Source: Branchiostoma floridae
Lineage: Eukaryota; Chordata; Leptocardii; Amphioxiformes; Branchiostomatidae
NCBI RefSeq assembly: GCF_000003815.2
Contig: NC_049984.1
Coordinates: 8,326,197 to 8,390,196 of the forward strand
Direction of reading: 5' to 3'
Length of the DNA: 64,000 nucleotides
Shown here: positions 1 through 50,420 of the stretch, in pieces
How positions within the stretch are numbered: position 1 is the first letter of the stretch
Layout of the letters: the number at the start of each line of letters is the position of its first letter
Program-made: the position numbers and the translations under genes
Notes under the pieces: model-generated
What the model was told of the DNA's origin: nothing
The model's input: only the letters and a program-made list of their open reading frames with translations
Databases searched by the model: none

Positions 1-1918
1 CTTCTGAAGCTGAATTTCTGGCAAAGACAGACAAACAGGAAGTTTTTCTATACATGTATATGAAACGAGGTAAAAGTTCAATTTGATGTTAGATAAATGA
101 TATAATTGTGCCACATTCCATGAAACTCTACAGGGCCTATTGTTCAATCCTGAAATGTTTATATGGTATTATTTTGAGAACAAAGGTGCACTGGATGTAA
201 GTAATTCTTTAACAGATTTCTTGCACAACTTGGTGATATTTTTGTATTGTATTTTGTACAAAGTTATCCAATTTTACAACATGTGATTGTTGTGCCAGTA
301 TTGTGTGATTTTTGTCCTAGGGCTAGCCATACTGTGTTGCTGCTACAATGTTATGGTAAAATATATGTAAAATTTGCTAGCCGAATTAGGATTTGTGTTG
401 TATAAGAGCAATGAAAAATTCATTGTGCAATTAATTTCAAACTGCTGTGCCAAAATGGTTGGCAATGTTGGCATGTATATGCATCTAATATTATTGCTTT
501 TGCTGAAGAATTAGCTGTTTTTCAATAGAGTAAATCGACGATAGTAATTGTCAATATTTTTTATTTGTCGTAGTCGGAGAGTAATGAATTCTAGTAGAAT
601 TTCAGAATTTTCTAGAATGTTGTACACCCTGTTTGATAATATTTCCCACCTAGATGTTTCCACAAATGAAATTTCATAGAGTTTCATGATTTGAAGACAC
701 TTATTGAATGGTGAACGTCATTGGGTTGTCAACCTACATGTATCACTATTGCCTCCTAGCAGATGTAGTGTGAATTACATTATGTATTCCTACAGTGCAA
801 GTACTTAACATGTAACGTCTTATCCGTCCATATTGGTGTGTATGATCCACATTCCTGTGTACAGAGAGCATTTTCTGAAATAAAGATGAACCATGTGTCA
901 TACTCTTATAGTTGAGTTGTCCGTATTTGCTGGTATCTGTTCTACAATGTCCCCAATTGTCTGCTTGACTGGACAATTCAAACCTTTGCAGTAACGTTAG
1001 ACTATGAAATATTTGGTTGCCATGGCATTATCTAAATGAAAGTCAGATTGAAGCTGCCCAGGCATCAGTACATTCATTCCATCAGCTTACCAGACAGTTC
1101 ATGATGCCGCATGAAAACAATTTTTTCAGTGACTCCAAAGATTTACAGGCATAGTATCAGCGACATCATCATTACCGGCGGCTTGCCCGGACCAGGTCCA
1201 CTCTCTCTCATTCCAGTTTACCTACCATCAGTCAAGAGTTACTAATGTTGTTTATGAAATATGAGTGCGAGAATACCGGTCTCACAGCGACATCTAGCAG
1301 GTACCGTTTGTACTACAGGTTTTAACCTGTTTAAAAACTTTCGTGTTGGCTGACATGAACATGGTTGTGTTAAACCACAGTGACTTCCAAGCGGGTCCGT
1401 TTTCGCTAGTTTTCAGAAAGAAAGGGGAAGCAGCTTAGCTATAGTGTATGCCAGCTTGCTACACCGTCTTCTGAACAAGATAATCAACATAGTCTCCAAA
1501 CAGATGTTGAGATGGTCGTGACGACCTTATGTTAAAGAGCAAAATTTGGCAATTTGAAGGTAATCTCTCTAGTCACTTTCGTAGCTGCGGTCCAGAGCGG
1601 TACTGCAAAGTAGGCTCTCGTAGGGTATATCCGACTTTTGAAAAAGAAAATGTGTGAAAATGTACAAGACATTCGAGACGACATAAAAAGATATAAGGAG
1701 CCCATGCCATGGAACACAATGATCGCCCATTGAAGCGGCACCTACATTTATGTACACTTCTTGTACCTAATGCATAGGCTATGGATACACATGGACATCA
1801 TCTACTTTGCCCTGAAAACTTTGGCCTGTTGCTTCATCGTTGCAGTGGGTGGTGCATCAGTGGTAGGAAGCCAGGGACCATGTCGCTAAATACGTCTACT
1901 GATCTCTAATAATGGCGC
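1..1918. other. Noncoding flank, no gene seen
   Basis: AT-rich sequence with no long open frame, recognisable exon or repeat array. Short open frames on both strands look like chance. It lies far downstream of the 3' end of FoxF. I see nothing specific in it. Confidence 0.5.
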
Positions 1919-2106
1919 AGTCACCTTCGTAATGGGATTTTGATGTCATGCGATTTTCAAGCAGGCTGTGACAGAACCAACCGCCAATAACTATGCAAGA
2001 CAATCTTTTCGGTATCAAGACAGCTGAATTTGTACGATGCATGCGCGACTAACCCAAGAATGCCCTCATTTTCGATCGCACGACGGTCGTACGACGAATG
2101 TGACCA
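1919..2106 (+). repeat. Dispersed MITE-like repeat, GTCGTACGAC family, copy 1
   Basis: The right part (about 2025-2106) reads ..TTTGTACGATGCATGCG.. then AACCCAAGAATG, then GATCGCACGACGGTCGTACGACGA. The same order of words occurs reversed at 8013-8168 and in direct orientation at 57661-57846. The left boundary is approximate; GTCACCTTCGTAATGGG is the probable start. No coding capacity. I infer a short nonautonomous DNA element of unknown superfamily. Confidence 0.45.
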
Positions 2107-4738
2107 TGTCCTTAACCCCCCCTCACATTAGGCGCGATTCGATCGGACGACGAGTCTGCGAGCGCCTAAGTGACGAAGAGGCATGTCCGGGAAGCCTGCA
2201 TCGTGCAAATTCAGCTGCTTTATTCGGGAATGGAGACTCGTCGTTCCGATCGATTTTCACTACATGTGACGGGTGCATGAGCGCAGATTTTAAAACAAAT
2301 ATTGTACTAACACTGCTGTGCCTGTAATAACTGGGCAAACACCTAAGCAGTAGCCTGTTTACGGGGGTGTGATGGGGCGAACACTGAAAACAGTACCAGT
2401 GAAAAGTGCCAAACCACGGGCCTCTTAAGACTCTTTAGCCTAGTTACATCTGGGGACCCAAAACAACTCCTTCACGCACGCTGGGTCGGTCTGGTGAACC
2501 ATGTTCGGATGTCGTGAGAGGAGAATGACGGCACCGTGGATTCCCCTGGACCGCCCGACAGGCGTCACACATTCCTGTGCCTTAAGTCCGTCCTAACCAG
2601 ACAATTTAGTAAATGGGGTTTCACTTAACAAGGCTTTGTGTGGCGGAGAGCGCCCGGATTGACTCGGGAGCTCAGGAAATGCCTGAAATCTGTGAAATCA
2701 TCCTCTGTGAATGTCAGGGGGGACGCAGGTGGTCCAGGTGCCAGAATAAACAGCCGTGCGACGGTCAAGATCAAGTTGGATTGGGCAGCAGGAGAACGAC
2801 GGATTTCATGACGCCTGTTGGACGTCAGCGTTGGCGCAGAACACGCTTAGTACGTGACTTAGCTGTGACTTTAGGGATGCTATTCTAGGGATAACCTTTC
2901 CCACACCTTATGCCAGGACAGTCTGTTATCAGCAACGAGGAAAGAATGTGCTCACTAGCTACGACAGACAGTATGACAGAATGGTGTGTTAACGCTTAGC
3001 GATTGGGATTGTGTCCATGGAGCGCCCAAAGGAAAATAGGCAGTTTGGTCAATGCGAGATCCTTTCCTCTTCACACTTCTTTTTTTTTTTTTGACGTTGT
3101 CTGAACATTATCATAATCAGGCATGTCTCATACAGAAATTAGCTGCCTACATAAAGTGCTGTCTTAAATGTTGGTTCTGCCACAGCCTGCTTGAAAATTG
3201 TACGGAATCAAACTCAACGACTTACGACAAATCAATGTGACCGCGCCATAACCCTCCACGTGTGTTTTTCTCTTGCTAAAGGGGAATGACCACACGTCCC
3301 ATCACACCCAAAACACCTGTTTCACAGCCCAGGGGCTGGGTCAAAGGTCAACCGAGCCTCTGGGCCCTCTCCACCCACGTGTGCATGACGGGAAATGCTA
3401 CCGCCCGAATAGATGGAATACTTCCTCAGAATGTCAAAATATCGACCTTCTCAACCCCCATACGCTTGTTGTTGGGATGGGGAAACTTCGAGGAAATAGT
3501 TTTCAAATGTAAGGATGGTTTCTCATGTTAGGATGGGTTTTACAACACAGACTCTGACGGGTAAAAACAAAAAAAAATTCCCGCCGTCCGGATCCCATGT
3601 TTTATTGCCAACTAATAATGCCATATAATCAACAAATTAGAATCCCCATCAGTTTTGAAATTCTGCAAAAGAAAAATATAGATTATCAATGTTTTTCGTA
3701 CATTGGACGATCTATGAGACCAGTGTGAGAACGAAACAAGTAAAATACTCTCTTTAAGCCAAAATAACGGTTGATGATCTTTACTTGCACGTTCTTGCCC
3801 ATATTATATGAGACTCTCTTCCCCAAGCGCCATTTATAAATTATCATAAGTCAGAAAGTCATTGTATGTCCAGAGCGCCGGGCTACCCAAACCAAACGTT
3901 CAACTGCAGTACCGTAAAATGCCACTAGAAGGCCCATTTTCGAATTTGTCCAATGTTTTTCCAACCCCCATACACCTACCAAATATTGTCAACATCCATC
4001 CTCGGGATATTCGATAGACACACAGAAACACAGACAAACGGCATCCAAAGTAAACCTTCTTGGCGAAGGTAAAAATAAGAAAAGGTCATAATTACGAATT
4101 TCACAGTCCCCTATGTGGCGGTCAAAACCACCATAAGTCCCTGTATGATTCCAACACCTTGTGGATTTCATAACCGGATTGACAGCTATAATCTGTTCTA
4201 ATCCTAACCTTCGACCCCACAGATTTTCCATTTTCCTCTCGTTCTGAAATCGCTTCCCGAAAGCCAGGTCCGTTTTCCAAAACAACGGCCACTTCATTTC
4301 CCCTGCTTCCTCCTCGGCATCGTCCCAACCTGTAACCGGACCTGTGCCTCTGCTATGTGTGCGACCTGTTGTGTTGATTTAAGGGCGATGTACTCTCTCT
4401 TAAGAGCGACATCATCTCGGCTACCAGGAGAGGATGTCGTCCCTGAGGAGAGGAGGACAGCCGAACTTTACCCCGAGATTCTGAGTTACGTTTTCACGGT
4501 GCCTCTAGTTACAACAACAGTGGGGACCTCTGTGGTCTGTCGCATGGGCCATGGGCTCGTGTTTTATTCACTGGAATCCTCAGAGTTCTTCATCACATAT
4601 GAGGACGAGAAAGACATATCAATTCCGCACGAAGTCCACGCTGACTTGACATCCGCGCGTGCCTAAATTTCTTTACTTTGGGACTATACTGTAAATCATA
4701 CAAAGAAGATGCAAATTTAGAAAACATATGCTGTAGAT
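2107..4738. other. Noncoding flank
   Basis: No gene recognised. A 103-codon open frame at 4355-4666 has no recognised domain, no convincing splice context and no repeats. A poly-T tract lies near 3080. The stretch 2340-2880 is mildly CpG-rich. Confidence 0.4.
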
Positions 4739-4798
4739 TGCTAGCCTGTGTACCATCCTATTTACCACTCTTAGATTTCTTTGCACCCAGGCTAGTAA
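4739..4798. repeat. Short imperfect inverted repeat with CTAGCCTG / CAGGCTAG ends
   Basis: CTAGCCTGTGTACCA at the left is mirrored by TTGCACCCAGGCTAG at the right, about 12 of 15 positions pairing, with roughly 28 bp between. The termini resemble the AGCCTGG ends of the transposon at 40.9-50.4 kb and of the MITE at 39.6 kb. It may be the remnant of a related element, but it is too short to be sure. Confidence 0.3.
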
Positions 4799-4910
4799 AA
4801 AAAGAAACCATATGCATCGGGAAATTAATACTAACGAACGAAGTATTGGGGACATGTGCATTTTGCCCGTGACATGCTGCTGACCAAACTCGTAGTTTGA
4901 GAGCATGTTA

Positions 4911-5088
4911 TTTGTTTGTTTGTTTGTTTGTTTGTCTGTTTGTTTGCCATAACTGGTAACACACCAGTTTTGTACAATATTTGCAAGCTGTCTAAGACCA
5001 GGCAGTAAGGTTCGATCTGCTCACACTGGGACTGATCCCTTCTCTCTCCGCTACGTGTGGTGGGTTCTTTAATGAATGAATGAATGAA
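4911..5088 (-). repeat. (TTTG)n tract, SINE-tail-like segment and (AATG)n tract
   Basis: 4911-4946 is a TTTG tetranucleotide run, equal to CAAA on the minus strand. It is followed by unique sequence and then, read on the minus strand, TTAAAGAACCCACCACACG near 5052-5071. A close match to that word, GTTAAAGAACCCATCACACG, occurs on the plus strand at about 63057-63077 near the second SINE. 5071-5088 is a short AATG run. I infer part of a dispersed SINE 3' region. Confidence 0.4.
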
Positions 5089-6125
5089 GACCTTTATTGT
5101 ACATTCATACCCACTGGGTTTAGTACAGGTCACAACAAATGATACAACATGATATAATGATACAATGAATCTACACTACTCAAGGATCGTATTCTACTGC
5201 GTACATTCGGCTTCTTCTCGTTTCTTTGTGATATTGAAAATGTAAGAACAGATATGCTTGATAAGTAAAGGCTTGTCTAGATTCATAAGGAATATAAATT
5301 TGTCTATATTACTTAGTTGTATGAAGTGGTAATGTGGTTTCCGTTAATGCTGTTTGTTTCAATTGTGTTTTGTGCGTCTTTAGGGTTTTGTGAATTTGCG
5401 TATTTTGTCCGTTGCTTTCTAGTGGCTCTCCTCAAATACGTGACCTCTAGCTTTACAACCCATCCTAGAGGACGTCCCTAACCGAAGCTAGGCACTCTTT
5501 TTCACCATAGTCAAGTGAAGAAATAGGTCATTAAGCCTTTCCCAGGGGCAGAACAACCCTAACCACTTTGCCACTTTTATCATTGAGGTACGTTTTCCAA
5601 GCAATACTTTAGGTTTCATTCTGATCAGTACTTTGCTGTATGTAGCTACGCCATATGTTAGCATCGAACTTAACATTATACTATTCGATTAAGACTCGGT
5701 GATGACAGACAAACAAGGCTTTCAACGTGTAATTACACGATGATTGAGCTAACACGTGTGATCCATAATTCCGTTTATTATTTGACTCCATCAAAACAGC
5801 CCCCTCTCTCCTGCTGAAATCCCTCGGGAACAGAGAGCATCGTGCCCGAGGGACGCAGCGACCACGCGTGCCCCACTCCTGCGCGTGTGGTCGTAGGAAA
5901 ACAAATTTGTTCGCGATGTCAGGAATGCGAGGTTGAGGCACGTTTCGTTTCATGGGTGCACAGATCATTTCTGGCAATGAAAGCTGTTGCTGCTCCGCCC
6001 CCGGTGCCTACTGTTTCCCCTCCCCCGCATCTGGCACTGAACGTTACCGCCACCTGCACACTTGGTCTCTACCAGACTCCGGCCTGGCCAAGTAGTAATA
6101 GGGGACTTTGGCCAAGTTAGGAATA
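5089..6125. other. Noncoding, with CpG-rich patch 5800-6070
   Basis: No gene recognised. The 5800-6070 segment is clearly richer in C, G and CpG than its surroundings, like several other patches in the window. It could be a regulatory element, but nothing in it proves that. Confidence 0.35.
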
Positions 6126-22441: not shown

Positions 22442-32994
<10,553 letters not shown>

Positions 32995-36200: not shown

Positions 36201-39142
36201 GACAGAACAGCGCGTTTCTCACGACTGTAACTCTGATTGACGCTCTAAACCGCAGGAACATGGTAGAACATTTGTACGGGCGCCCCAGCTGGGCCGATCT
36301 AAAGTCAATTAAGGGTTCTCTACTGGGCGGGGTGAGAGGTTATCTTGGAGGGCCGGGCGGACGTCTAGCGGGTATTGTTCTTGGTAACTGTAGGTGACAT
36401 TAACGCGGGCGGGCGGAGCCGTCAGCAGCGAGCCGCACCACACACATGGCGGGGGCTCGGCTTACCCGGCCCGCATTCCTTCATTAGCGCTGCCCCGCCT
36501 TACTGGCTTGTACAGGATGACTTACAGGACAGGGCGTGAAAGTACACGGGGAGGGGGGCTGCCTTTGGTCCCTACTAGACTCTATAAATCTAGGCTGATG
36601 GAAAAAGTAGAAATTGGCCCAAAAAAATGAATAATATGCCAGAGGATTTAGCCGGCCATAGACTAGAGTACAGATTGCAACATTAGATTCTAGCAGAAAA
36701 TAGCAGGACACAAGTAATACTATGAAATCTCCCACCGATTTTTAGCTTTAAAAATAAACCTCATACTTGTTACGTTAGACTTAAAGAGTAAACGAGGTTT
36801 GTGTGAGTATACAAAGATACAACTTTATTACAAGGCGATTTGCACCATCACTAAGAAGTAAGAACGATACAAAGTGTTACAATCTGCTGTATCGTTCACA
36901 CTGTAGAGGATTTCCCGCGTAAACACGGCAGAGCAGATCCCGCGGTGTGGACCAACTGTGCTGCCCCGCCCAGGAAAATGTGCCGACAAATCACTCCAGA
37001 CTTACAACAATTCATCATCCGTTTTAGAGAGGTTAAATTTCGGATAACACGTAGTATGGTTGGGGGTGTAATGTGTGCTTATATTAATAGGATGAACAGG
37101 CAAAAATACAAGGAAAAACGTCTGCAGATATTAGAAGAAATAAAGATATAACGTTACTCCTATTTTCCTGACAACAATCCACAATTATCTTACCTCAGTA
37201 TAGGTACATGTTATCCGAATCCTCTATGCAATTATTTCCACACTATCCTGACTTATCTGTCCCTACAAACTGCCCTAATTCGCCCCTTAAAATAGACATT
37301 TATGAATGTCTCTTCACCTTGTATTGTACACACTCCATCTGTGTTGGTTGATAAAAATAGTCGCTGCCCTTTCTCGGGGGTTAACTATTGGCCCGCCCAC
37401 CAGTGGATATGTCCTATTGTGACATGATTTGCTGTAAACAGCACTTCTCACCTCAGTGAATATGCTAATTGTCTTTTAATAAACTCGTAATATACTCCGG
37501 ACCCGTTCCGCAAATAGGTGTGAACAATGGGAGGTGTTGGTCCATAACAACACCGATGTGTACAGAGATTCGGTCAGCACAGAAAGATATAGGCTCGGCC
37601 CTCAGGTTCTGAGAGTATATAGGAAACAAAAGTTTAGAAGATAGTTGCTTTACAAACGCCCGTGCCAAAGTTGTGAGGCTATAATTACGAAAGGTTGTTG
37701 TTTGGAATTGTTTGAAAGAAATGAGGATTAAACTTGACCGTTCTGTAACGCGTTTCGTGTGTGGGCAAGGTGGGGAGGGGAGCATGGAAATACTGAAAGG
37801 ACAGACCGCTTTTCTCCAGAATGTGCCTCGCAGTCTCAGTGTGAATGGATCAGAAAGTTTCGGCGCAAAGAGATCAGTACATCGAGCCTCAAATTGTCCC
37901 TAAAACGTTCTGCAAATAAAAACAAACAATGGGGGTCAGTGGCCCATGTGAACGAGACTATGTACACGGGGACCTGGGGTCGAGAGTACCTCAATCCGTA
38001 CAATGAAGGGACTCCTGACTGTGTGTAGGCTTCATGCCGATGAAGTCTTACAGTTGACATGACCTTTCTTCTCTTTTTAAGATCTCCCTTTTGATAATCA
38101 AGTTCTTTTCGTAGAACGTATGTGAAGATTTCATACAAGTTGCTGTATCTGTCACAGATCTTGTAATTGTTAGTCTTTATAAGGAAACTTTACTAGATAA
38201 CGTTACATGTAAGATTTACATACCTTCAATTTAGCTATCTGCGAATTGTCAACAATGTTAGATATTTACCTGACCTAAAATCGTCTTTCTATACCCTGGC
38301 ACTGACTTAAATGATTAAATGGCTGACCGCAAATGCGATAGGATGGTTTGGTTGATGTCCCACTTAGCAGCGCCAAAATCATGCAAGCGAAGTTTTGGAT
38401 CTGAGATCGAGAGAAAAACAAGTATTTTGTGGTGTCCATTTTTTCCTCTGTTCGCACATCTTTGCTGGCACGCACATGGCAAGTGAGAAAGACTATCTGT
38501 TCTCTAAGTGTTTGTCTTGACGTCTTGGCTCCCATAAGAAAACACGAGTTCGCGCGAAGAACAAACGTTTCCACAGGTGAAGCCTGCGTGCTGAGTGCAG
38601 CGGCCATCCTCTGCTGTGTATCCAAGGGCCGTGCCAAAACAAGATCGCTGTGTTCCTTCAAACTCTGGAACCAGAAAAAACACCACACGTAAATGTGGGT
38701 CACGTCGACGTGAAGAGAAATGGACAGATAGGTTTTGACCGGCGTATGTGAGATTTGGAGGTTAAGCATATGGGGGAGGGGGCAGGAACTTTGTATAGAA
38801 CGCTGTTGCATTTGTACTGACATGATGCGATAATCTAGGCATTGTAAAAACAGGTACATGAGAAACTACGTAATTGTTAAGACACTGCTCAAGCATTAGA
38901 CTCTAGACTCATCCCAAACTAGAACTGTTGTTATACCCTAATCGTTATGCAATAAAGCTATCACCACCGTCTGTTGGTCATCAGAACAACTCATTACGAC
39001 TGGATGGATTGATTTTATCATTTGTATGTTAGTGGGCTGTGAAAAACTTTAAAGATTTCTGTCCCTAGACCCAGATTGCTTTGCACGGTCCTGCAGAGGA
39101 ACTTCCGGCTTCGGGCCCCTAGCAGCTTCTTCTAGAACTGCA
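33238..39142. other. FoxF upstream region, no gene seen
   Basis: GC-rich to about 34100, then AT-rich with CpG-rich patches at 35050-35110 and 36280-36520. 35056-35107 contains the self-complementary GGGGGCCCGGGGGGCCACCCCC-type hairpin. No Fox paralogue (FoxC, FoxL1, FoxQ1) and no other conserved exon is seen. Open frames up to 194 codons (38275-38859, minus) show no domain or splice support. Confidence 0.45.
36590..36672 (+). repeat. Copy of a dispersed repeat also at 6441-6520
   Basis: AAAGTAGAAATTGGCC, then AATAATATGCCAGAGGATTTAGCCGGCCA match AACAGTAGAAATTGGCC, then AGTAATACACCAGAGGAGTTAACTGGCCA in the 6.4-kb block. Short and diverged, no coding capacity. Confidence 0.5.
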
Positions 39143-40888: not shown

Positions 40889-40896
40889 GTATTCTT
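40889..40896. repeat. Left target-site duplication (GTATTCTT)
   Basis: GTATTCTT directly abuts the left transposon end and is repeated exactly at 50413-50420 directly after the right end. An 8-bp exact duplication at both tips of an inverted-repeat element is the footprint of cut-and-paste integration. Confidence 0.9.
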
Positions 40897-40965
40897 TAGC
40901 CTGGTATCCAGCCGTAATATAGCTTCCGAGTCTCTTCTTTCCTCTCTGGCAATTACGTCTGGCCC
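40897..40965 (+). repeat. Left terminal inverted repeat (69 bp, one 33-bp unit)
   Basis: It runs from TAGCCTGG to ..ACGTCTGGCCC. It is identical over all 69 positions to the right repeat once the extra 33-bp units there are removed. It contains one copy of the AGCTTCCGAGTCTC..CTCTGGC unit. Confidence 0.93.
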
Positions 40966-41005
40966 TCGTCACTTGGAAAACGATTTCCGTTACATCACTA
41001 AGTAG

Positions 41006-41050
41006 CTAATAAATATGCATGAGTTACTATCTAATAAATATGCATGAGTT
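41006..41050 (+). repeat. 25-bp tandem duplication upstream of the transposase gene
   Basis: CTAATAAATATGCATGAGTT occurs at 41006 and again at 41031. It lies about 275 bp upstream of the predicted start codon, between the left terminal repeat and the gene. It contains TATA-like and ATGCAT words, so it could be promoter sequence (inference). Confidence 0.6.
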
Positions 41051-41323
41051 GCGCTCTTAGCTGGTCGGGTGACCTTTGGAACAAATGCGCCAATCAGGAA
41101 GTGCCATTTTTCACGTGACCTGTTGTTGATTAACAGAGGTCACGCAGCTTCCAGAATTTCGCGGGAACGGTCGAATTGGTTTTGTTGCGTATCTGGACAA
41201 TATTCTCGCCGATTTCCGTCCAATTTCAAAGAGACATCATGGAATTTTGGATTAGCACCTTAGTGGCACTCTGTATGATGGGCCTGGGAGAAAAAATTCA
41301 CAGAAACGGGACAGTCTTTCGCG

Positions 41324-44300
41324 ATGTCTGCGCCGAAGAAGGTCGGTGTTCAGACATCCAACCTCCATGATTTTTGCCGACTGTGCGACTCCAACCAGAA
41401 GATCAAGGGAACGTTGCAGCATTGCAGACTTATTTTTCGAGCTAAGATAGCGCAATCGTGGGTAAAAAAGGAACCTGGTACACCGTCGCCACCACCGATT
41501 CCGATTGTGGATGTGTTGCAGTATATAGGCTTGGACGTATCGGAACAGGACGAAAGCAAATCCCACCGAATCTGCGAAGCCTGCTGCCGCAAAGTCGCAA
41601 GGGTTCGGGGGTCCATAGGAGATCTGAACGAGTGGAAAGCAAATGAAGGCCGTAAGGATGCGTGCCGCTCTCCAGTTGCAACGAGAAAACGGAGCCGCGA
41701 AACACCATCTAAGACACCGCGTGACAACAAGAAACGGGCCACCAAGACACCGACAAAAGCAGCCACGCCATCTGTAGCCGCGAAGCCTGATAAAGGGAAG
41801 AAGATGAGTCGCCTGCCCGACCGAAAAAGTGACACAAAGGTATAGTACACAATTTTATATGCGGTAAAGTGTTGACTATTTCATTTCTAATAGTAACATC
41901 GCATTTAAAACATGCTGTTGTAATTGACACGTCTCCCTTCAAAGCGAGAAATTCATCTTTTACTCGTCGCGACAAAGAAAGTAACGTAAATATTGTAGAG
42001 GGGTCACTATAAATCAAGTGCATTTTCGTGATTTTCTACGCATGAATTATAACGTTAATGGTCTGGACAGTGTTTTAGAAAAGTATTTATGTGTCTGGCA
42101 TTACAAAATTTAGCAGGTCAGGGATTATTAAAGTGAAATATGCGTAACTGAATTGATGCCTAATGAAAATAAAAATAGATTTGTGATATATTCTGTGGGA
42201 CATAAAGGGTGTCCTGGCAAGGTGCAAAAATTATATGTATGTGTGTAGAGATTAGAGAAGTGTATGAACAAAATACAAAAGAATGAACCCGTCTGTTATT
42301 TTTCAAGTTCAGTCACTGATGTTTTCAATTAGCAGCAAGAATGATTGACATATATGTGTGAAATGCTTCCATGTAAAAAAATACTAGAAATATATGGGAA
42401 TATTTGTTGGATGATATTAAGAGGTGCACATTAATTGCCACTTCATCACGTATACTTTCTTGCCTGCCTGTCTAAGTTGGTTTTTTTCTAATTATGATTT
42501 ATAGTTGGCACTGATTTCAAACTTGAACATTTTGAAATGAACATATCACTAAACATATGATTATGAGATATATTTATCACTTGTGTAGTTGTAACTTGTA
42601 TTCATTATTTTATCTGCAATCATAATTTTCTGTAATCTGATAGTGATCTGAACATGGGGCAATAGCATTTGACTGTTTTCTAATTTTTTTCTTCAGCTCA
42701 GCATATCCTACCAGAGCAAAGAACGAACCCACTCGTGCAAACAAGATGTTGCTGGCATAGCTGAAAACCTTGCCAAGGGAAAGTTTGATACATGTGCTAA
42801 GATGATCATGATACACCCCACACTGAGGCTGAAGATTTGGGACCAGCTGGTACAACAGGTACAGGCAGAGAGAACCTCACTGCTAGCCACATCTCCCAGT
42901 CCCAGCATCCTTCGAAAAACGACACCGTCTGATCTACAGAACTTTTCCTACTCAGCCATGGAGACAGAGCTGAAGGAACGAACACCCCTTCTCCACATGG
43001 TACTGTCAAATATCTCCAATGATTCGCAGGTACACACCTGTGTTGCAGCATCAATTGCCATTCGTGGCAAGGAGGCTAGGATGTCTGCCCTGGCCTACAT
43101 CACAGATGCCATTTTGCAGTATGGCGGTACAAAGAAATCAGCTATAGAAATGCTAGCCAAGATGGGAATTTCCACCAACCATAACAACGCAGTCGCAAAA
43201 CAACATGAAATGAGCCTGAACCATGACAAAACTGTAAAGGAATGGAAAAGAGACCTTGAAGCGTACTACAACAGAGATACAAGCCAGCCAGCCTCCACCA
43301 ACCCATCACTGAGCCAGCCTGCCTCCACCAACCCAGCACTGAGCCAGCCTGCTTCCAACGACCCATCACTGAGCCAGCCTGCCTCCACCAACCCAGCACT
43401 GAGCCAGCCTGCTTCCAACGACCCATCACTGAGCCAGCCTGCATCCTACAACCCATCTCTGAGCCAGCCTGCCTCGACCGACCCATCACTGAGCCAGCCT
43501 GCCTCCACCCACCCATCACTGAGCCAGCCTGCATCCTACAACCCAGTACTGAGCCAGCCTGCCTCCTACAACCCAGCACTGAGCCAGCCTGCATCCTACA
43601 ACCCAGCACTGAGCCAGCCTGCATCCTACAACCCATCTCTGAGCCAGCCTGCCTCGACCGACCCATCACTGAGCCAGCCTGCCTCCACCCACCCAGCACT
43701 GAGCCAGCCTGCATCCTACAACCCAGCACTGAGCCAGCCTGCCTCGACCGACCCAGCACCGAGCCAGCCTGCCTCCTATAACCCAGCACTGAGCCAGCCT
43801 GCCTCCTACAACCCAGCACTGAGCCAGCCTGCCTCCTATAACCCAGCACTGAGCCAGCCTGCCTCCTACAACCCAGCACTGAGCCAGCCTGCCTCCACTC
43901 ACCCATCACTGAGCGAGCCTGCCTCCTACAACCCATCACTAAACCTGCTTGCCTCCAGCAACCCACCACTGAGCCTGCTTTACTCTTGCAACACACCACC
44001 GCACCTGTCATTTGCCTTTGAGATAACAGACGAGGAGATGGCCATGTGTGGGCTGCAAAGTCTGAACATAGATGATGCCCCGTCACCAACCGGCTTTTGT
44101 CCCCTCCCACCTTGCACGTACGGCATCACATTCGACAACGTGAACTTTTACGTAAAGGCCCACCACCAAACAAACAGTAAACACAACACAATGCTCAACT
44201 GGACACACCATGTAGCAGTTCTAGACAGAATCACCCCTCACCACCTCCGCAACACAGGCTCAACTAAACCTCTCCCTGACCTAAACCTGGATGAGGTGCT

Positions 44301-46683
44301 ACCTACACACCTGGATCAGCAACACACGAGAAGAGAGTTTGTCGTCATGGCTACAAGAGTCATCCCCAGACACCTTAAGGAGTTTGAGATATTCAAGGAC
44401 GTCGTTGTGGCCCACATACCCCACCAATACTCCAAGGAAATGGCAGAGAAGTCCACAGAGGTATGTTTGAAATACTGTACTATATGGAATCTTTCAGTAT
44501 GATTTGTGAATAAACAGTGCACTACAAAACAGACTTGTTGCATCCTACTTTATAGCTATGAGTGACTGTAATGCATGTAGTATATATGTATTTGTCAAGC
44601 TATTTGATGGAGATTTGCATGAGGTGAGTTATTCAGCATGCTTTTGAATTCTATCAAACATACATGTTCCTGCAGTGACTTAATGTTAATGCAACCAAGA
44701 CCAAATATCCATGTTTCTCATGTGTTTTCACAGGTGCCATTGGGGCTGCTGTTCAAGGATGAATGCAAGACTGGGGACCTTGTTGACATCCTACTCCATT
44801 TCCAGAATGAGTAAGTTTGGTTCATATCACTATCATGTACTAAGCTGCTCATGTAAATACTTATAAAGAGTATTAGTTTTGACTTTGGGATGTATTGAAC
44901 AACTGCATGTGGTGATGGACATGTCATATTAAAACAAAGTGAACTTATCTTCCTGCAATGTTCCAGGTACGTCCCACGTCAGGGAGAGAACATGGTCCCC
45001 ATCTTCGTTGGCGGGGACAGGTTGTCCGAAGGCAATTCCCGCAACATACAGTGGGCGTTTGCGGAGGGAGACACACGGGAGGACCGCCTGCAGGGAATCT
45101 TTGTCAAGTTTGAAGACTGGCACGCCATCCGAAATAAACACGGGGTATGTCTTTCTTCATTTTACAAGCATGTGTGCACATAGTATTGAGACACACTAAC
45201 ACATGTTTGTCTGTGGTCACATTATATTTTTATGTGTGTGTGTCATTCAGTCTATACAGACTATGAATTCTACGCAAGCTAACGGCAAGACTATTACAGT
45301 TGTACAGTAGTACAATACAGAATATTTTTATAATCCCAGAAAAATTGTTTTCCAGATACACAAGTCAATCTTCTTCTCTGAGAAGTCTGCTCGAGAGCAT
45401 GGCAGCATGTGCAGTAACATGAATGTCTTAAGAGCCAGCAATGCCAAGAAGGGCCCGCACCAGGACTACAACTCGTACAAAGAGTTTGTCGACAAGGACC
45501 TGGATGCCCTGATCCTGACGGTTGCCATGGACTACTTCGGCATGGACACCATGGAAGGTACACTTTTCACACCGTTATTTCTGTAACATAAATTGGTGGA
45601 TGTTAATTGCATATGTTATGCTATTAATGTGTAATTTACTTACTGGTGTGGTTTGCCTGTTTTTCAAAACTTGTCTTTGTTGTACATATAATATCTCTAG
45701 ATCTCCCAAAGAAGAACTGCTTTCCACCCGACATTGCTGTGGCTGACAAGGAGACCAGGCGAGCCTGGCTATCTGAGCAAGTGGGCCACATCATTGACAA
45801 GTACGTTATGCTGAAGGAAGGGGAAATTGTTTCCAATGTAGCTAGCGGGGTAAAAAGTTCCTTTTTCCCCCCAGAGCCCCTTCCCTGCAGGTACCCAGAT
45901 TGTCATCGCACTTTCCGACATGAGAAAATCAGAAATGACCATGAAATTCAAGCACACGATCTCAACATGCAGCCTACACCTAACCCTAACTCATCACCAG
46001 ACAAGCCAAAGGAGTCGTGCCAGGAGGAAGACTACAAAAGAAACTATACCCTGGCACGTCTCTCCTATGGCCTGTTTCTCAGAAACATGAGGGATGCTGT
46101 GAAAGAAGGAGATGGGGAGCGCCTTCAGAGACTTTACTCATTTGCAATGCTATACTACAGGGCATATGGACACACCCAATATGCTTACAGCAGTTTTCTC
46201 ATGAAGGTTCAAGTTGCCTCTATTCTGTCACCACACATGGCTCACAGTCTTGTCTGGAATCGCTTCTTCAACAAAAGGGGGGGGATGGGACAAAATATCT
46301 CACTAGATCTAAACCTCGAGAATCATAACAACTTCGCGAAGAGTTTCCTCAAGAACATGGGCCCAAATCTCAATGAAAAAAGTGCTTTACGAGTCACCCG
46401 TAGTTTGCATTACCTCAAGGCATTGATGGACAATCAGAATGCAGCATTGGGTCGAAGGGGTGCTTCAGGTTACCACCACAAAGAGAAATGGGATGAAGAC
46501 ATTAAGTTACTCGTTGAGGAGAACAGGAAGGCTGACCTGTTGGCCGTCATCCCAGGCCGGGCATTTGAATCTTTCCCTTCATTCAACAGAAATCTGTTGC
46601 ATAAGATTGACTACAACAAGACAGCAAAGTGGATGAAAGAGAAGCTTAAGTCATGGAATAAACACTACCACACTGACCTCTAA
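41324..46683 (+). CDS. ZAD-like / DUF6589 protein, probable transposase (six exons, 1,239 aa)
   Basis: Exons are 41324-41839, 42697-44460, 44734-44810, 44967-45144, 45356-45557 and 45701-46683. All junctions are GT/AG and every phase matches, giving 1,240 codons. Residues 18-87 have a ZAD-like pattern (CRLC ... ICEAC, Cys 18, 21, 84, 87), followed by a Lys/Thr/Pro-rich basic stretch. Residues 368-607 are a 10-residue repeat. From about 675 the sequence follows the DUF6589 family: VLDRITPHH, VGGDRLSEGNSR (like family GDQLT), FEDWHA, LRNMRDAVKEGDGERL, GQNISLDLNLENHNNF. D803, D836 and E1119 are candidate DDE residues (inference). A C2H2 finger (C975, C980, H993, H998) lies between the second and third. 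It ends 1.0 kb from the convergent helicase gene, inside the same element. The domain match is from memory of the family, not a search. Confidence 0.88.
43282..44001 (+). repeat. In-frame 30-bp minisatellite, 24 units (SQPAS..P.L)
   Basis: Inside exon 2 of the DUF6589 gene. Twenty-two good units (to 43941) and two degenerate ones encode S-Q-P-A-S-x-x-P-x-L with x = T/Y/N, N/D/H and S/A/V. Units are highly similar, and the frame is never broken. The last units (NLLASSNPPL, SLLYSCNTPP) are diverged. A 322-codon antisense open frame over the array is a by-product of the repeat. The region is probably an unstructured Ser/Pro-rich linker of variable length. Confidence 0.95.
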
Positions 46684-47666
46684 ATTCACACTCGATGCTT
46701 TTGTTCTATTTTTCTCAAAGTAAACCTCATTCAATTTTTTCAACCCTGTATACATTGGAGTCTGTCTAATTTGGGAGTGCAAATGTATTTACATATCATC
46801 AGTCACGAGAACTGTTCATTCCAATGAGGCAATGTGAAGTACAACCGTTTGCATAATTTGAGCTCTGTATAAATGTATTTGCGTATAATCGCAACGAATC
46901 TCCAGTCCAACGAGACAACGAAAATATATCATTTTGCATAATTTGAGCTATGCACAAATTTATTTGTATATCAACATTGATGACAATCTGGGTCATAAGC
47001 AGCTGATTGGTACCTTCCATGGTTTCCTTGTAAAAGTGATCTATTTTAGCCCTTGTATCAAATAATAGCAAAGAAAACCTCCTGACTTTCATATGAACTT
47101 TATTGTAACATAACGATGTCCTATGAATGTACAGCCAAAGCATACAGTTCATATACAATCTTGGTCATTGCTATGTCACCAGTTATGTTAATGGTGCCCA
47201 ATGTATTTCTATTGTAAATTATTGTTATATAAAACATCCATAGTAATTTGAAAGCATGTTCAATCTATTCCATTACTTGATCACTAAATATCTGAACGGT
47301 GACTGGAATTAGTGAATAGTTGTACATGTACTAAGTCTGCTTCTACTCAGGCTCAAATAGTTTGCCGTTTAGAGTCTGGTGATACACTTTTTGTAAATGT
47401 CTGTACATACAAGAAACTTAGCCCAATCTCTTGACTTTCATATGATCTGTACTGAAGAAAAGGGTGTTCTATGAATGTACAGTCATTCATATAGATTATA
47501 TACATATACTGTCACTTCAGCTGTGTCACCTGTTGTGTTAATGGTGCGCAATGTATTTCTATTGTAAATTATTTAAATGTATATTCACTGTTTGTCGTAT
47601 AAACTTACTGCATCCAATATAGTAACTTGAATACATGTTTAATCTATTCCATGACAAATACGTTCA
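46684..47666. repeat. Gene-end spacer of the transposon with nested direct duplications
   Basis: Three related words (GCAAATGTATTTACATATCATC, TAAATGTATTTGCGTATAATC, CAAATTTATTTGTATATCAAC) recur about 85-90 bp apart at 46779-46985, the later two preceded by TTTGCATAATTTGAGCT. Then about 240 bp at 47040-47281 is duplicated with divergence at 47388-47657, sharing TATGAATGTACAG, TGTTAATGGTGC.CAATG and TTTCTATTGTAAATTATT. No open frame of note. Confidence 0.7.
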
Positions 47667-47672
47667 TTTATT
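47667..47672 (-). terminator. Probable polyadenylation signal of the helicase gene (AATAAA)
   Basis: TTTATT on the plus strand reads AATAAA on the minus strand, 45 bp beyond the helicase stop codon. The short spacing suits a compact transposon gene. Confidence 0.5.
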
Positions 47673-47716
47673 AAACATGTATACAATGCTATCAGTAGGC
47701 AGCAAGTATAATCTGT

Positions 47717-50130
47717 CTAATCTTCTTCATAATCATACTCCTCAACATTATCAATGTCATCCACAACATTAAGCACAAGTCCTTCATCAAAATATCCAGC
47801 AAAATTGTAGTCAAAAGCTTCTTGCTCTTCTTCTACAGACAATCCCCAAGGGTAATCCCCGAGTACCTCATCTATGTTCTCAATGTCATCAAAGACTTCG
47901 CTTATAACACACAAGATTTCCTTAGCATGGTTTGGATTAAAGATAGAAAACCTGTCAAACACATACCCCAATGTGAAAATATGATCACAATTTTGTACCA
48001 CAGAGTCAATTAGCCCATCGCTAAAACCTGTGCACTCAACATCAGTGGTGAAAAGTGGGACATTCTGAGACAAAGACTCCTTATAATCTCCCAGTACCTC
48101 CCTTATAAGTGCTCGCTGACGTTCATCGACATCTCTAGTTCTGGTTGGAAGTGTTATTATATTCATGAATGATTCGTGCTCAGGAAACTTCACAATGCAA
48201 GGGTCTGGCTCTGAGCAATTACATGTGCGATGACAAACTGAGCAACAGTCATGCCCCGGCTGAACTGAAATTGGACTTTCTTCAAAATGTTTGTATAAGC
48301 GTTTTCTTATGCAGTCATTCCCCCCATCCTCTCCCCGAGCAAACGCTTTAACAGCCTGGTCTGCATGTATCATCTGTACCCGGTTGTAGTAAAACACAGC
48401 ATGTGCCTGTCCACCATCACGACCTGCTCTACCCACCATCTGAAGTACATCTTCCATGTCATTAGGTGGCCCAAACAATACTATCCTTGATATAGTCTTA
48501 AAATTCAATCCCATTCCTAGGGCAGTTGTGGCTACAACTACCCTACAACTCCCCATACCTAGAAATGAATTAACTACCCTGGTCTTGTATTTCTGCCATG
48601 TTGGAGCGTGATACATGCCAATAAGCAAGTTTGCTGAACACTGCTCCCCTACCCAAGCATCATCACCTAGTTCAGATTGCAGGTAATTGTATACCCTCCC
48701 CGCCAAAAATATAGATGGACTGTAGATAATGATGTGGTCCATGTCCAGTCCTTTCTTCCTAAGCTCCTTTACAATCCAGTCAAGGCAGACCCAGGAATCG
48801 AATTCTGTTTTTACCACAGACAATCTAATGTTCAGCCTGTTTGGACTGGCTTTCACTACATGTGCGTTCTGCAAGTGGAGGATCCTCACCACCTTCTTTG
48901 TAGATTGTAGCTCTGCTGATGCGGTGAGAGCTAGAATTGGTGTTCCTGTACAGGAAATGGAAACATTCAAACTAATTAAAGTACTGAATGACTGGAAAAA
49001 AATTTACTGAAAATCCAGCAAATACTTCTTAATATTAAGAGTAGAATAAATACTGCTTAAAAAGTGCTTATAACATTGCCATGGTCTCATACTGTTTGTA
49101 ATATTGCTTCTAATATTGTTTCCTGTTATCTTTAATGTTGTATGTTATGTTTCCTTGCTAAAGTCACATAATGTCTGAAAAGCAAAGAATAAAGTTGAGA
49201 AAGTATAACAAATCAACTTACTAGCCTACATAATAGGCTAAAATTGATTCACAATAACAATATCTGTAAATATTCAGAATTTAAAATTGACATAGTGATG
49301 TACTCACCTTCTTTTGTAAGAGATCTGAGTTCTCCAAGTCGACTGAAAGCTTCTCTGAAGGCTTGCTTTTGTGGATCTTTAGTCAGTCCCCTGCGAAAAA
49401 ATCATGTTATCGAGTTAGCTTTAAGAAGAGAGCTACGGCCTTGCAACACACACACACACAAAACAATGCATGCAACGCAAGTCAGTGCCTAATGCATATT
49501 GTTATGCAAACGACCCAGTGGTAGCGCTGTGCACGCATTACATACGTACAGCCAAGGAGGTTAAAAACAACCCAAGCAACTTGCATAGTATGTCCATGCA
49601 ACACAAAAATGGTACATGCGTACTTGACAGGCAGAAAAAAAGAATATCGTTAATAAGTACCATTTGTATGTGACGTGGACCTCATCTACCACAACCGCAA
49701 GGAGATTTTCCTCATACACGGTGGACGATAGCATGTCCCTCCACTGCTCTTGGCAAATAAACCGCTCCGGGCTCCCAAACACTAGCTGGAACTCTCCATT
49801 GATGATACCAGCACGTTGATTGTCGTCTCCAAGATGTGTTGCTGTCACCCCAATTCGTGTAGCCTCGCGAATTTGGTCCTCGATTAGTGCAGTGAGCGGC
49901 GACACCACCACTACAATTGGATTCTGGCGACCCAATTTCCTCGACACAAGCGGGGCGATTTGATAGATTAAACTCTTACCAAATCCGGTAGGCAGGAGCG
50001 CCAAAACGTCCTTTCCGTCGAGAAAGGCCTTTAAGACCTCTGTTTGCTCGTTTTTCAGTGAAGAAATGCCGGGCAATTCGCCCAAAACAGACGCGATAGC
50101 ATCATTTACGTCGGCTTGGGGGCCGGCCAT
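47717..50130 (-). CDS. RecQ-like SF2 DNA helicase of the transposon (three exons, 593 aa)
   Basis: Exons on the minus strand are 50130-49661, 49390-49308 and 48945-47717. GT/AG sites and phases agree (W157 split TG|G; G185 split G|GA). Helicase motifs in order: motif 0 LKNEQTEVL; motif I PTGFGKS (47-53, ATP binding); Ia VSPLTALIEDQ; motif II DEVH (149-152, Mg/ATP hydrolysis; usual RecQ is DExH); III LTAS; IV IIIYSPS; V VATTALGMG (322-330); VI QMVGRAGRDG (353-362). A Cys-rich zinc-binding-like segment follows (CIRKRLYKHF at 396, then C418-C434), as in RecQ proteins. No HRDC or exonuclease domain is seen. The C-terminus is acidic. It probably unwinds or processes DNA during transposition (inference). 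It is convergent with the DUF6589 gene and starts 115 bp inside the right terminal repeat. Confidence 0.9.
49445..49461. repeat. (CA)n run in helicase intron 1
   Basis: Short CA dinucleotide run inside the 270-bp first intron (49391-49660) of the helicase gene. Confidence 0.85.
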
Positions 50131-50244
50131 GTTGATGATGATCGCTGTGCCTCCCGAAGAGGATCATTTGCATCGGATGAGCCTGATTGGCCCGCATACT
50201 TTCTATGCGGGGTATTTGAAATCCAACTGATATCCGTTTGATCG

Positions 50245-50412
50245 GGGCCAGACGTAATTGCCAGAGAGGAAAGAAGAGACTCGGAAGCTTTTGCCAGAGA
50301 GGAAAGAAGAGACTCGGAAGCTTTTGCCAGAGAGGAAAGAAGAGACTCGGAAGCTTTTGCCAGAGAGGAAAGAAGAGACTCGGAAGCTATATTACGGCTG
50401 GATACCAGGCTA
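50245..50412 (-). repeat. Right terminal inverted repeat (168 bp) with four 33-bp units
   Basis: GCCAGAGAGGAAAGAAGAGA units begin at 50260, 50293, 50326 and 50359, exactly 33 bp apart and almost identical. The repeat is therefore 99 bp (3 x 33) longer than the left one. Outside the units it matches the left repeat perfectly. The units may be transposase-binding sites (inference) or simple replication-slippage expansion. Confidence 0.93.
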
Positions 50413-50420
50413 GTATTCTT
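50413..50420. repeat. Right target-site duplication (GTATTCTT)
   Basis: Exact copy of 40889-40896, directly outside the TAGCCTGG-type right terminus. Confidence 0.9.

What the first reader, a model, noticed from the sequence alone, without database searches (positions are those of the whole stretch)
40889..50420. Complete, apparently recent DNA transposon coding for a DUF6589 protein plus a RecQ-like helicase
Exact 8-bp target duplications (GTATTCTT), terminal inverted repeats identical over 69 bp, and two multi-exon genes without a stop or frameshift form a whole autonomous element of 9,516 bp. The transposase-helicase pair recalls AcademH from memory, but the 8-bp duplication does not match the 3-4 bp I associate with Academ. 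It is either an unusual member or a separate lineage.
Basis: partly seen in the sequence, partly recalled or inferred. Interest (0 to 1): 0.9.

Follow-up and report, generated by a model that had tools for sequence, protein, structure and literature searches.

The report
Intact helicase-carrying DNA transposon (AcademH-like)
A complete, apparently recent 9.5-kb cut-and-paste "jumping gene" that carries a probable transposase and a RecQ-type DNA helicase; it belongs with the known AcademH-like elements, and its relatives in the same genome show that the puzzling 8-bp target duplication is normal for the group.

Summary
Window 40897-50412 is a 9,516-bp element with an exact 8-bp duplication, perfect 56-bp inverted ends (69 bp if a 99-bp tandem expansion in the right arm is skipped) and two convergent intact genes: a 6-exon, 1,239-aa DUF6589 protein and a 3-exon, 593-aa RecQ-type helicase. 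Of 28 fetched loci with the same ends, 21 have exact duplications: 15 of 9 bp, 6 of 8. Two diverged full-length families have 9 bp; an internally deleted copy of a third has 8. So the group makes 8- or 9-bp duplications. Of 51 DUF6589 loci, 19 lie by this helicase, 8 precede a different domain (AcademX-like), none has both, 24 neither. Best reading: an autonomous AcademH-like cut-and-paste transposon, recently active. Formal membership is unproven (no Academ reference sequence; 8/9 versus 9/10 bp). Mostly a good new member of a known kind; linking DUF6589 to the transposase core is the useful part.

The parts
40889..40896 (.). left target-site duplication GTATTCTT
40897..40965 (+). left terminal inverted repeat (56 bp contiguous perfect, 69 bp when the right-arm expansion is skipped); outer end TAGCCTGGTATCC
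41324..46683 (+). gene 1, putative transposase, 1,239 aa; exons 41324-41839, 42697-44460, 44734-44810, 44967-45144, 45356-45557, 45701-46683; DUF6589 at aa 702-1171; C4 motif at the N-terminus resembling zf-AD (E 0.5, not significant)
43282..43975 (+). in-frame 30-bp tandem array, 23.1 copies, between N-terminal region and DUF6589 core
   Evidence: 18.1 copies in the C16 copy
47717..50130 (-). gene 2, RecQ-type SF2 helicase, 593 aa; exons 50130-49661, 49390-49308, 48945-47717; convergent with gene 1
50258..50388 (.). 33-bp tandem unit x4.0 (100%) expanding the right inverted repeat by three units
50245..50412 (-). right terminal inverted repeat, including the 99-bp expansion
50413..50420 (.). 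right target-site duplication GTATTCTT

Best explanation
An autonomous AcademH-like DNA transposon. The DUF6589 protein is most likely a DDD/E (RNase H-fold) transposase that binds the inverted ends beginning TAGCCTG, excises the element and joins it to target DNA with an 8- or 9-base stagger; gap repair makes the duplication. The RecQ-type helicase from the convergent second gene most likely unwinds DNA at the ends or at the gaps during or after strand transfer. The same machinery probably mobilises the short, often nearly palindromic derivatives made of the two ends (at least 114 with perfect ends). Shown: ends, duplications, intact frames, relatives with the same plan, near-identical copies. 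Inferred: DDD/E chemistry, the catalytic residues (candidates D652, D803, E1119), the helicase's role, who moves the short elements, and present-day activity.
For: Exact TSD, perfect ends, intact frames. DUF6589 and RecQ assignments (recQ_fam E 2.8e-58, though 197.8 bits is under its curated cut-off of 219.8). TSDs over copies: 21 of 28 loci with exact 8 (6) or 9 bp (15) (loci, which scored 40 of 708 candidates). Diverged families (39-49% identical over the last exon) with TAGCCTG ends: C16:2513525-2523353, 9,829 bp, 9-bp TSD; C10:22670920-22682939, 12,020 bp, 9-bp TSD; C9:3202336-3207903, 5,568 bp, 8-bp TSD, internally deleted. Transposase pieces match exon by exon in these families and the helicase lies convergent to it. 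Across the genome 19 of 51 DUF6589 loci have a helicase match within 12 kb (15 convergent, 4 same strand, 0 divergent), about 0.13 expected by chance. Seven DUF6589 cores from diverged lineages keep D652, D803, W837-H838 and E1119 (numbering of the window protein). Recency: a partial second copy on C16 with 11 differences in 1,956 nt over exons 1, 3, 4, 5 and 6 and no new stop there; C9 and C10 copies of another family 99.8% identical over 2,100 bp. 114 short elements with both 17-nt ends perfect and 60-90 nt between them, 0 with the control pattern. AcademH 9/10-bp TSD (PMC10045372 passage).
Against: No Academ reference sequence was available, so DUF6589 = Academ transposase rests on an indirect argument; a direct profile comparison of the focal core with an AcademX-like core was not significant (E 0.55), and the supposed nuclease of that AcademX-like ORF is not confirmed by Pfam, the PDB or an XPG_I search. 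TSD 8/9 is not the printed 9/10. The acid before WH varies (ED, EL, EV, EL, DD, DV, AE), so the second catalytic position is uncertain. No solved structure clearly matched the DUF6589 profile (3 hits at E 0.07-0.36, two of them SWI5 zinc-finger chains). 32 of 51 DUF6589 loci have no helicase match nearby. The near-identical C16 copy lacks the helicase half, and 7 of 28 loci show no duplication. In the C16 copy exon 2 aligns at only about 95% in pieces because the array length differs. No empty site was seen.
Confidence: 0.8

Rival explanations
1. A separate superfamily-level lineage, like AcademH in its helicase but not a member, defined by DUF6589, 8/9-bp duplications and TAGCCTG ends.
For: 8 or 9 bp in each of the 21 short-element duplications and the 4 long ones, no 10-bp case; direct profile comparison with the AcademX-like core not significant.
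Against: 9-bp duplications overlap the printed AcademH range; the Pfam DUF6589 model covers both the helicase-bearing ORF (E 2.3e-39) and a long ORF with a nuclease-like domain (E 9.9e-10), the split expected of AcademH and AcademX.
Confidence: 0.12
2. A KolobokH-type element: DDD/E transposase plus RecQ helicase.
For: KolobokH carries a RecQ helicase, and Kolobok-1_CCri carries it on the complementary strand, as here (PMC9587614, Background section read).
Against: Kolobok duplicates TTAA and has 5'-RR termini; here the duplications are 8/9 bp, not TTAA, and the ends start TAG. KolobokH was reported only from fungi.
Confidence: 0.02
3. A non-autonomous or domesticated copy: the frames are intact by chance or serve the host, and the short elements are moved by something else.
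For: The second, near-identical copy is partial and no other close helicase match was seen; expression was not examined.
Against: Intact frames through nine exons, perfect ends and duplication here, and near-identical sister copies are what a recently moved element shows.
Confidence: 0.06

Closest known systems
AcademH (Kojima 2020, Mobile DNA 11:15; paper not held; seen only as cited in passages of PMC10045372, PMC10799480 and PMC12210899)
   Same: DNA transposon with a transposase plus a helicase, reported from animals and fungi, duplications around 9 bp
   Different: printed 9 or 10 bp, here 8 or 9; no reference sequence to compare; gene order of published AcademH not seen
AcademX
   Same: the DUF6589 core is shared with long ORFs here that look like AcademX
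   Different: 3-4-bp duplications and a nuclease; this element has neither
KolobokH and Kolobok-1_CCri
   Same: DDD/E transposase plus RecQ helicase, on the complementary strand in Kolobok-1_CCri
   Different: TTAA duplications, RR/YY termini
hAT / P (8-bp duplications, recalled)
   Same: duplication of about 8 bp; hAT and P share a C/DxxH motif that the [D/E]xWH here resembles
   Different: no hAT or P Pfam domain in 7 cores at E up to 1; helicase gene; 8/9-bp mixture

Membership tests
AcademH | encodes a helicase beside the transposase | tested here: met
   RecQ-type helicase gene; recurrent neighbour of DUF6589, 19 of 51 loci
AcademH | 9- or 10-bp target-site duplications | tested here: inconclusive
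   the element itself has 8; its short relatives 15 of 9 bp and 6 of 8 bp; other families 9, 9 and 8. Overlap at 9, never 10
AcademH | transposase of the Academ superfamily | tested here: inconclusive
   no Academ reference held; indirect link through ORFs with DUF6589 + CXC + nuclease-like domain; direct comparison E 0.55
AcademX | 3- or 4-bp duplications and a nuclease | tested here: not met
   8-bp duplication; no nuclease domain in either protein at E up to 0.1
KolobokH | TTAA duplications, RR/YY termini | tested here: not met
   GTATTCTT duplication, TAG...CTA ends; definition from PMC9587614
hAT | hAT transposase domains | tested here: not met
   DUF6589 is the only Pfam family in 7 of 7 cores at E up to 1
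Helitron | HUH nuclease plus helicase, no TSD | tested here: not met
   inverted ends and TSD present; no Rep/HUH domain; definition from a PMC12730594 passage and, for the missing TSD, recalled
DDD/E transposases | RNase H fold with DDD/E triad | not tested
   only conserved acids seen; no fold was predicted, because spliced products and loci from the genome search are not on the structure tool's stated list of inputs

The most novel reading that the evidence does not exclude
DUF6589, still a 'family of unknown function', is the catalytic core of one large transposase superfamily that pairs, exclusively, either with a RecQ helicase as a separate gene or with a fused downstream nuclease-like domain; the helicase-bearing branch here has its own 8/9-bp stagger, so the partner enzyme rather than the core would set the stagger length.
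Probability: 0.25. Interest if true: 0.6.

Novelty: new member of a known kind. Interest (0 to 1): 0.42.

Why it matters
It is a complete, recent, apparently autonomous example of a rare transposon type for which I know of no biochemical study (I did not search for one), with ready-made short substrates (natural derivatives of about 113 bp) in the same genome. That makes it a practical starting point to ask what a RecQ helicase does in cut-and-paste transposition and whether it affects the stagger. It also suggests a function for a Pfam family labelled unknown.

Tried and rejected
Rejected: KolobokH (TTAA and RR/YY not met), hAT, Helitron, AcademX for the element itself (see membership test). 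Rejected: the argument that 8 bp excludes Academ.

Led nowhere: DUF6589 and helicase relatives in IMG/VR, three scans, none confirmed. Pfam XPG_I: 9 matches in the genome, none within 300 kb of a DUF6589 match. Ends of the C11:1210317 and C18:59776 families: not found in 14 kb each; the C18 helicase model contained 3 stops. The C10:11936162-11948131 copy has both inverted ends but no duplication. Ends of the AcademX-like ORF on C7: not found in the 7.5 kb held. The nuclease-like domain has no Pfam hit at E up to 10 and no PDB hit; calling it XPG-like rests on my eye and on recall. Empty site: both 1-kb flanks are single-copy in the assembly. The Kojima 2020 AcademH paper is not held; a guessed DOI fetched an unrelated paper, outline only, unused. 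DUF6589 appears in no paper of the library. A DNA search with the helicase half for further close copies did not complete, so that point rests on the protein search (74 of 141 candidates scored).

Rows dropped before counts: 56 of the 74 helicase matches were entered. The 18 left out are 17 short matches within residues 18-72 and the element's own middle exon; a few similar short ones were kept. 23 of the 28 nuclease-like matches were entered (5 second pieces of the same place left out). Alignment A2 holds 3 helicases; the C10:11936 model (an exon missed) and the C18 model (stops) were left out, and C16:2513 was not modelled. A1 holds 7 cores (the window, six others).

Full report
What was checked. 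The window holds an element from 40897 to 50412, 9,516 bp, between two copies of GTATTCTT. Gene 1 (+) has six GT-AG exons and 1,239 codons, gene 2 (-) three exons and 593 codons, neither with an internal stop. Pfam finds DUF6589 (E 2.3e-39) in the first and DEAD plus Helicase_C in the second. The helicase is RecQ-type: a profile of three family members hits bacterial RecQ (2.8e-46), WRN and BLM among solved structures, and NCBIfam recQ_fam fits at E 2.8e-58, under its curated cut-off.

The host. The own genome is held: 513,431,437 bases in 431 contigs, with the window at C6:8326197-8390196. No tool named it.

Target duplications over many copies. A search with the left end gave 75 matches, with only 40 of 708 candidates scored. 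Thirty loci were fetched. Two of them (L001, L017) are the two ends of the element itself. Of the other 28, 21 are short elements of 112-176 bp with exact duplications, 15 of 9 bp and 6 of 8 bp; 7 show none, including the partial C16 copy (first pass). Many have the end sequence on both strands back to back, that is, they are near-palindromes. A whole-genome pattern of both perfect 17-nt ends with 60-90 bases between them gives 114 places against 0 for the control pattern. The duplications show no obvious shared motif.

Sister copies. On C16 a second copy matches element positions 1-6104 with a 1.4-kb interruption near position 250; it stops before the helicase. Exons 1, 3, 4, 5 and 6 differ at 11 of 1,956 nt, with no new stop; exon 2 aligns in pieces at about 95% because its repeat array is shorter. 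A third relative on C6 (27.70 Mb) is 91% identical over part of the last exon and has a TAG in it. In the helicase protein search (74 of 141 candidates scored) the other matches of 120 residues or more are at most 63% identical, so this is the only copy of its own family seen here with both genes; a DNA search meant to check this did not complete.

Diverged families. Seven DUF6589 relatives at 39-49% identity over the last exon were found; six of them have a helicase match beside them, the C8 one has none. Exon by exon the transposases match, including the N-terminal C4 motif in two families. For three families I could read both ends with a duplication: C16:2513525-2523353 (9,829 bp, ends TAGCCTGAGTATC identical over 30 bases, duplication GAACTTTGT), C10:22670920-22682939 (12,020 bp, TAATCATCA) and C9:3202336-3207903 (5,568 bp, ATTAACCT, lacking much of the transposase 5' part). 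The C10:11936162-11948131 copy of the C9 family has both ends but no duplication; the two are 99.8% identical over 2,100 bp. For the C11 and C18 families ends were not found.

Genome-wide pairing. Pfam DUF6589 gives 60 matches in the genome at E up to 0.01 and rings in none of 14 control genomes. They group into 51 loci; 19 have a helicase match within 12 kb, 15 convergent and 4 in the same direction, none divergent, against about 0.13 expected. Eight others are followed on the same strand by a different domain; 5 of these 8 report the same open-frame length for both matches, so the two lie in one long frame. One such ORF (C7, 2,147 aa) carries DUF6589 (E 9.9e-10) and a Tesmin/TSO1-like CXC motif (E 0.00067, 20.3 bits, under the cut-off of 23.5; 5.4e-05 and 23.8 bits, just over it, when the C-terminal part is scanned alone). 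By eye the domain between them has XPG-like motifs, but neither Pfam nor the PDB confirms it, and no Pfam XPG_I match lies near a DUF6589 match. No locus has both partners; 24 have neither. From memory, Academ was first described with an XPG nuclease and an eight-cysteine motif. This split therefore looks like AcademH versus AcademX, and is my reason to call DUF6589 the Academ transposase core. The direct profile comparison of the two cores was not significant; both reach the same Pfam model.

How it most likely works. Seven aligned cores keep D652, D803, the WH at 837-838, two cysteines and a histidine of a zinc-finger-like motif (C975, C980, H998) and E1119. The order (a likely strand ending in D, a second ending GGD, an inserted zinc module, a likely helix with E; read by eye) is what a DDD/E transposase with an insertion domain would show; in every row an acid stands one or two residues before WH. 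[quoted passage not shown] I infer cut-and-paste transposition with an 8- or 9-base stagger. The helicase could open the ends or process the gaps; nothing here tests that.

Comparison with what is printed. PMC10045372 (passages read) says AcademH makes 9- or 10-bp and AcademX 3- or 4-bp duplications, and relates this to the enzymes carried. PMC9587614 (Background section read; other passages) gives KolobokH a RecQ helicase but Kolobok TTAA duplications and RR/YY termini. The AcademH paper itself is not held. The library has no paper with the word DUF6589. Searches for LanceleTn (0 papers) and for amphioxus MITEs with TSD terms (3 papers, titles on other superfamilies) gave nothing on this family. 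Whether this very family is already in Repbase could not be checked.

Verdict. The puzzle it raised largely dissolves: 8 bp belongs to an 8/9-bp group close to the AcademH range. I file it as AcademH-like and not as a proven AcademH, because one defining number differs by a base and no reference sequence was available.

Noticed in passing
window 43282-43975; L065 8474-9017; L047 and L050: Three lineages carry a tandem array in the linker before the DUF6589 core, with unrelated units: 30 bp x23 here, 27 bp x20 in the C16:2513 family, a 17-residue RSEDTHMRSEGGERE-like repeat in the C17/C11 lineage. Copy number differs between near-identical copies (23.1 here; 18.1 on C16).
   Followed up: partly
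window 50258-50388: A 33-bp unit of the inverted end has been tandemly quadrupled in the right arm only, with all copies identical.
   Followed up: partly
   Followed up: partly
C6, 19-28 Mb: DUF6589 matches cluster on contig C6: 18 of 60 lie on it and 14 of these between 19 and 28 Mb, most of them partial.
   Followed up: no
window 31432-32487, - strand: Open frame with a Forkhead domain (E 5e-17), probably a host Fox gene about 8 kb from the insertion.
   Followed up: no
window 38275-38865, - strand: Open frame with a weak sterol-sensing-domain match (E 0.0018, below cut-off), perhaps an exon of a patched-like gene about 2 kb from the element.
   Followed up: no
window 23302-23555: GC-rich minisatellite, 46/93-bp unit, 5.5/2.7 copies.
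   Followed up: no
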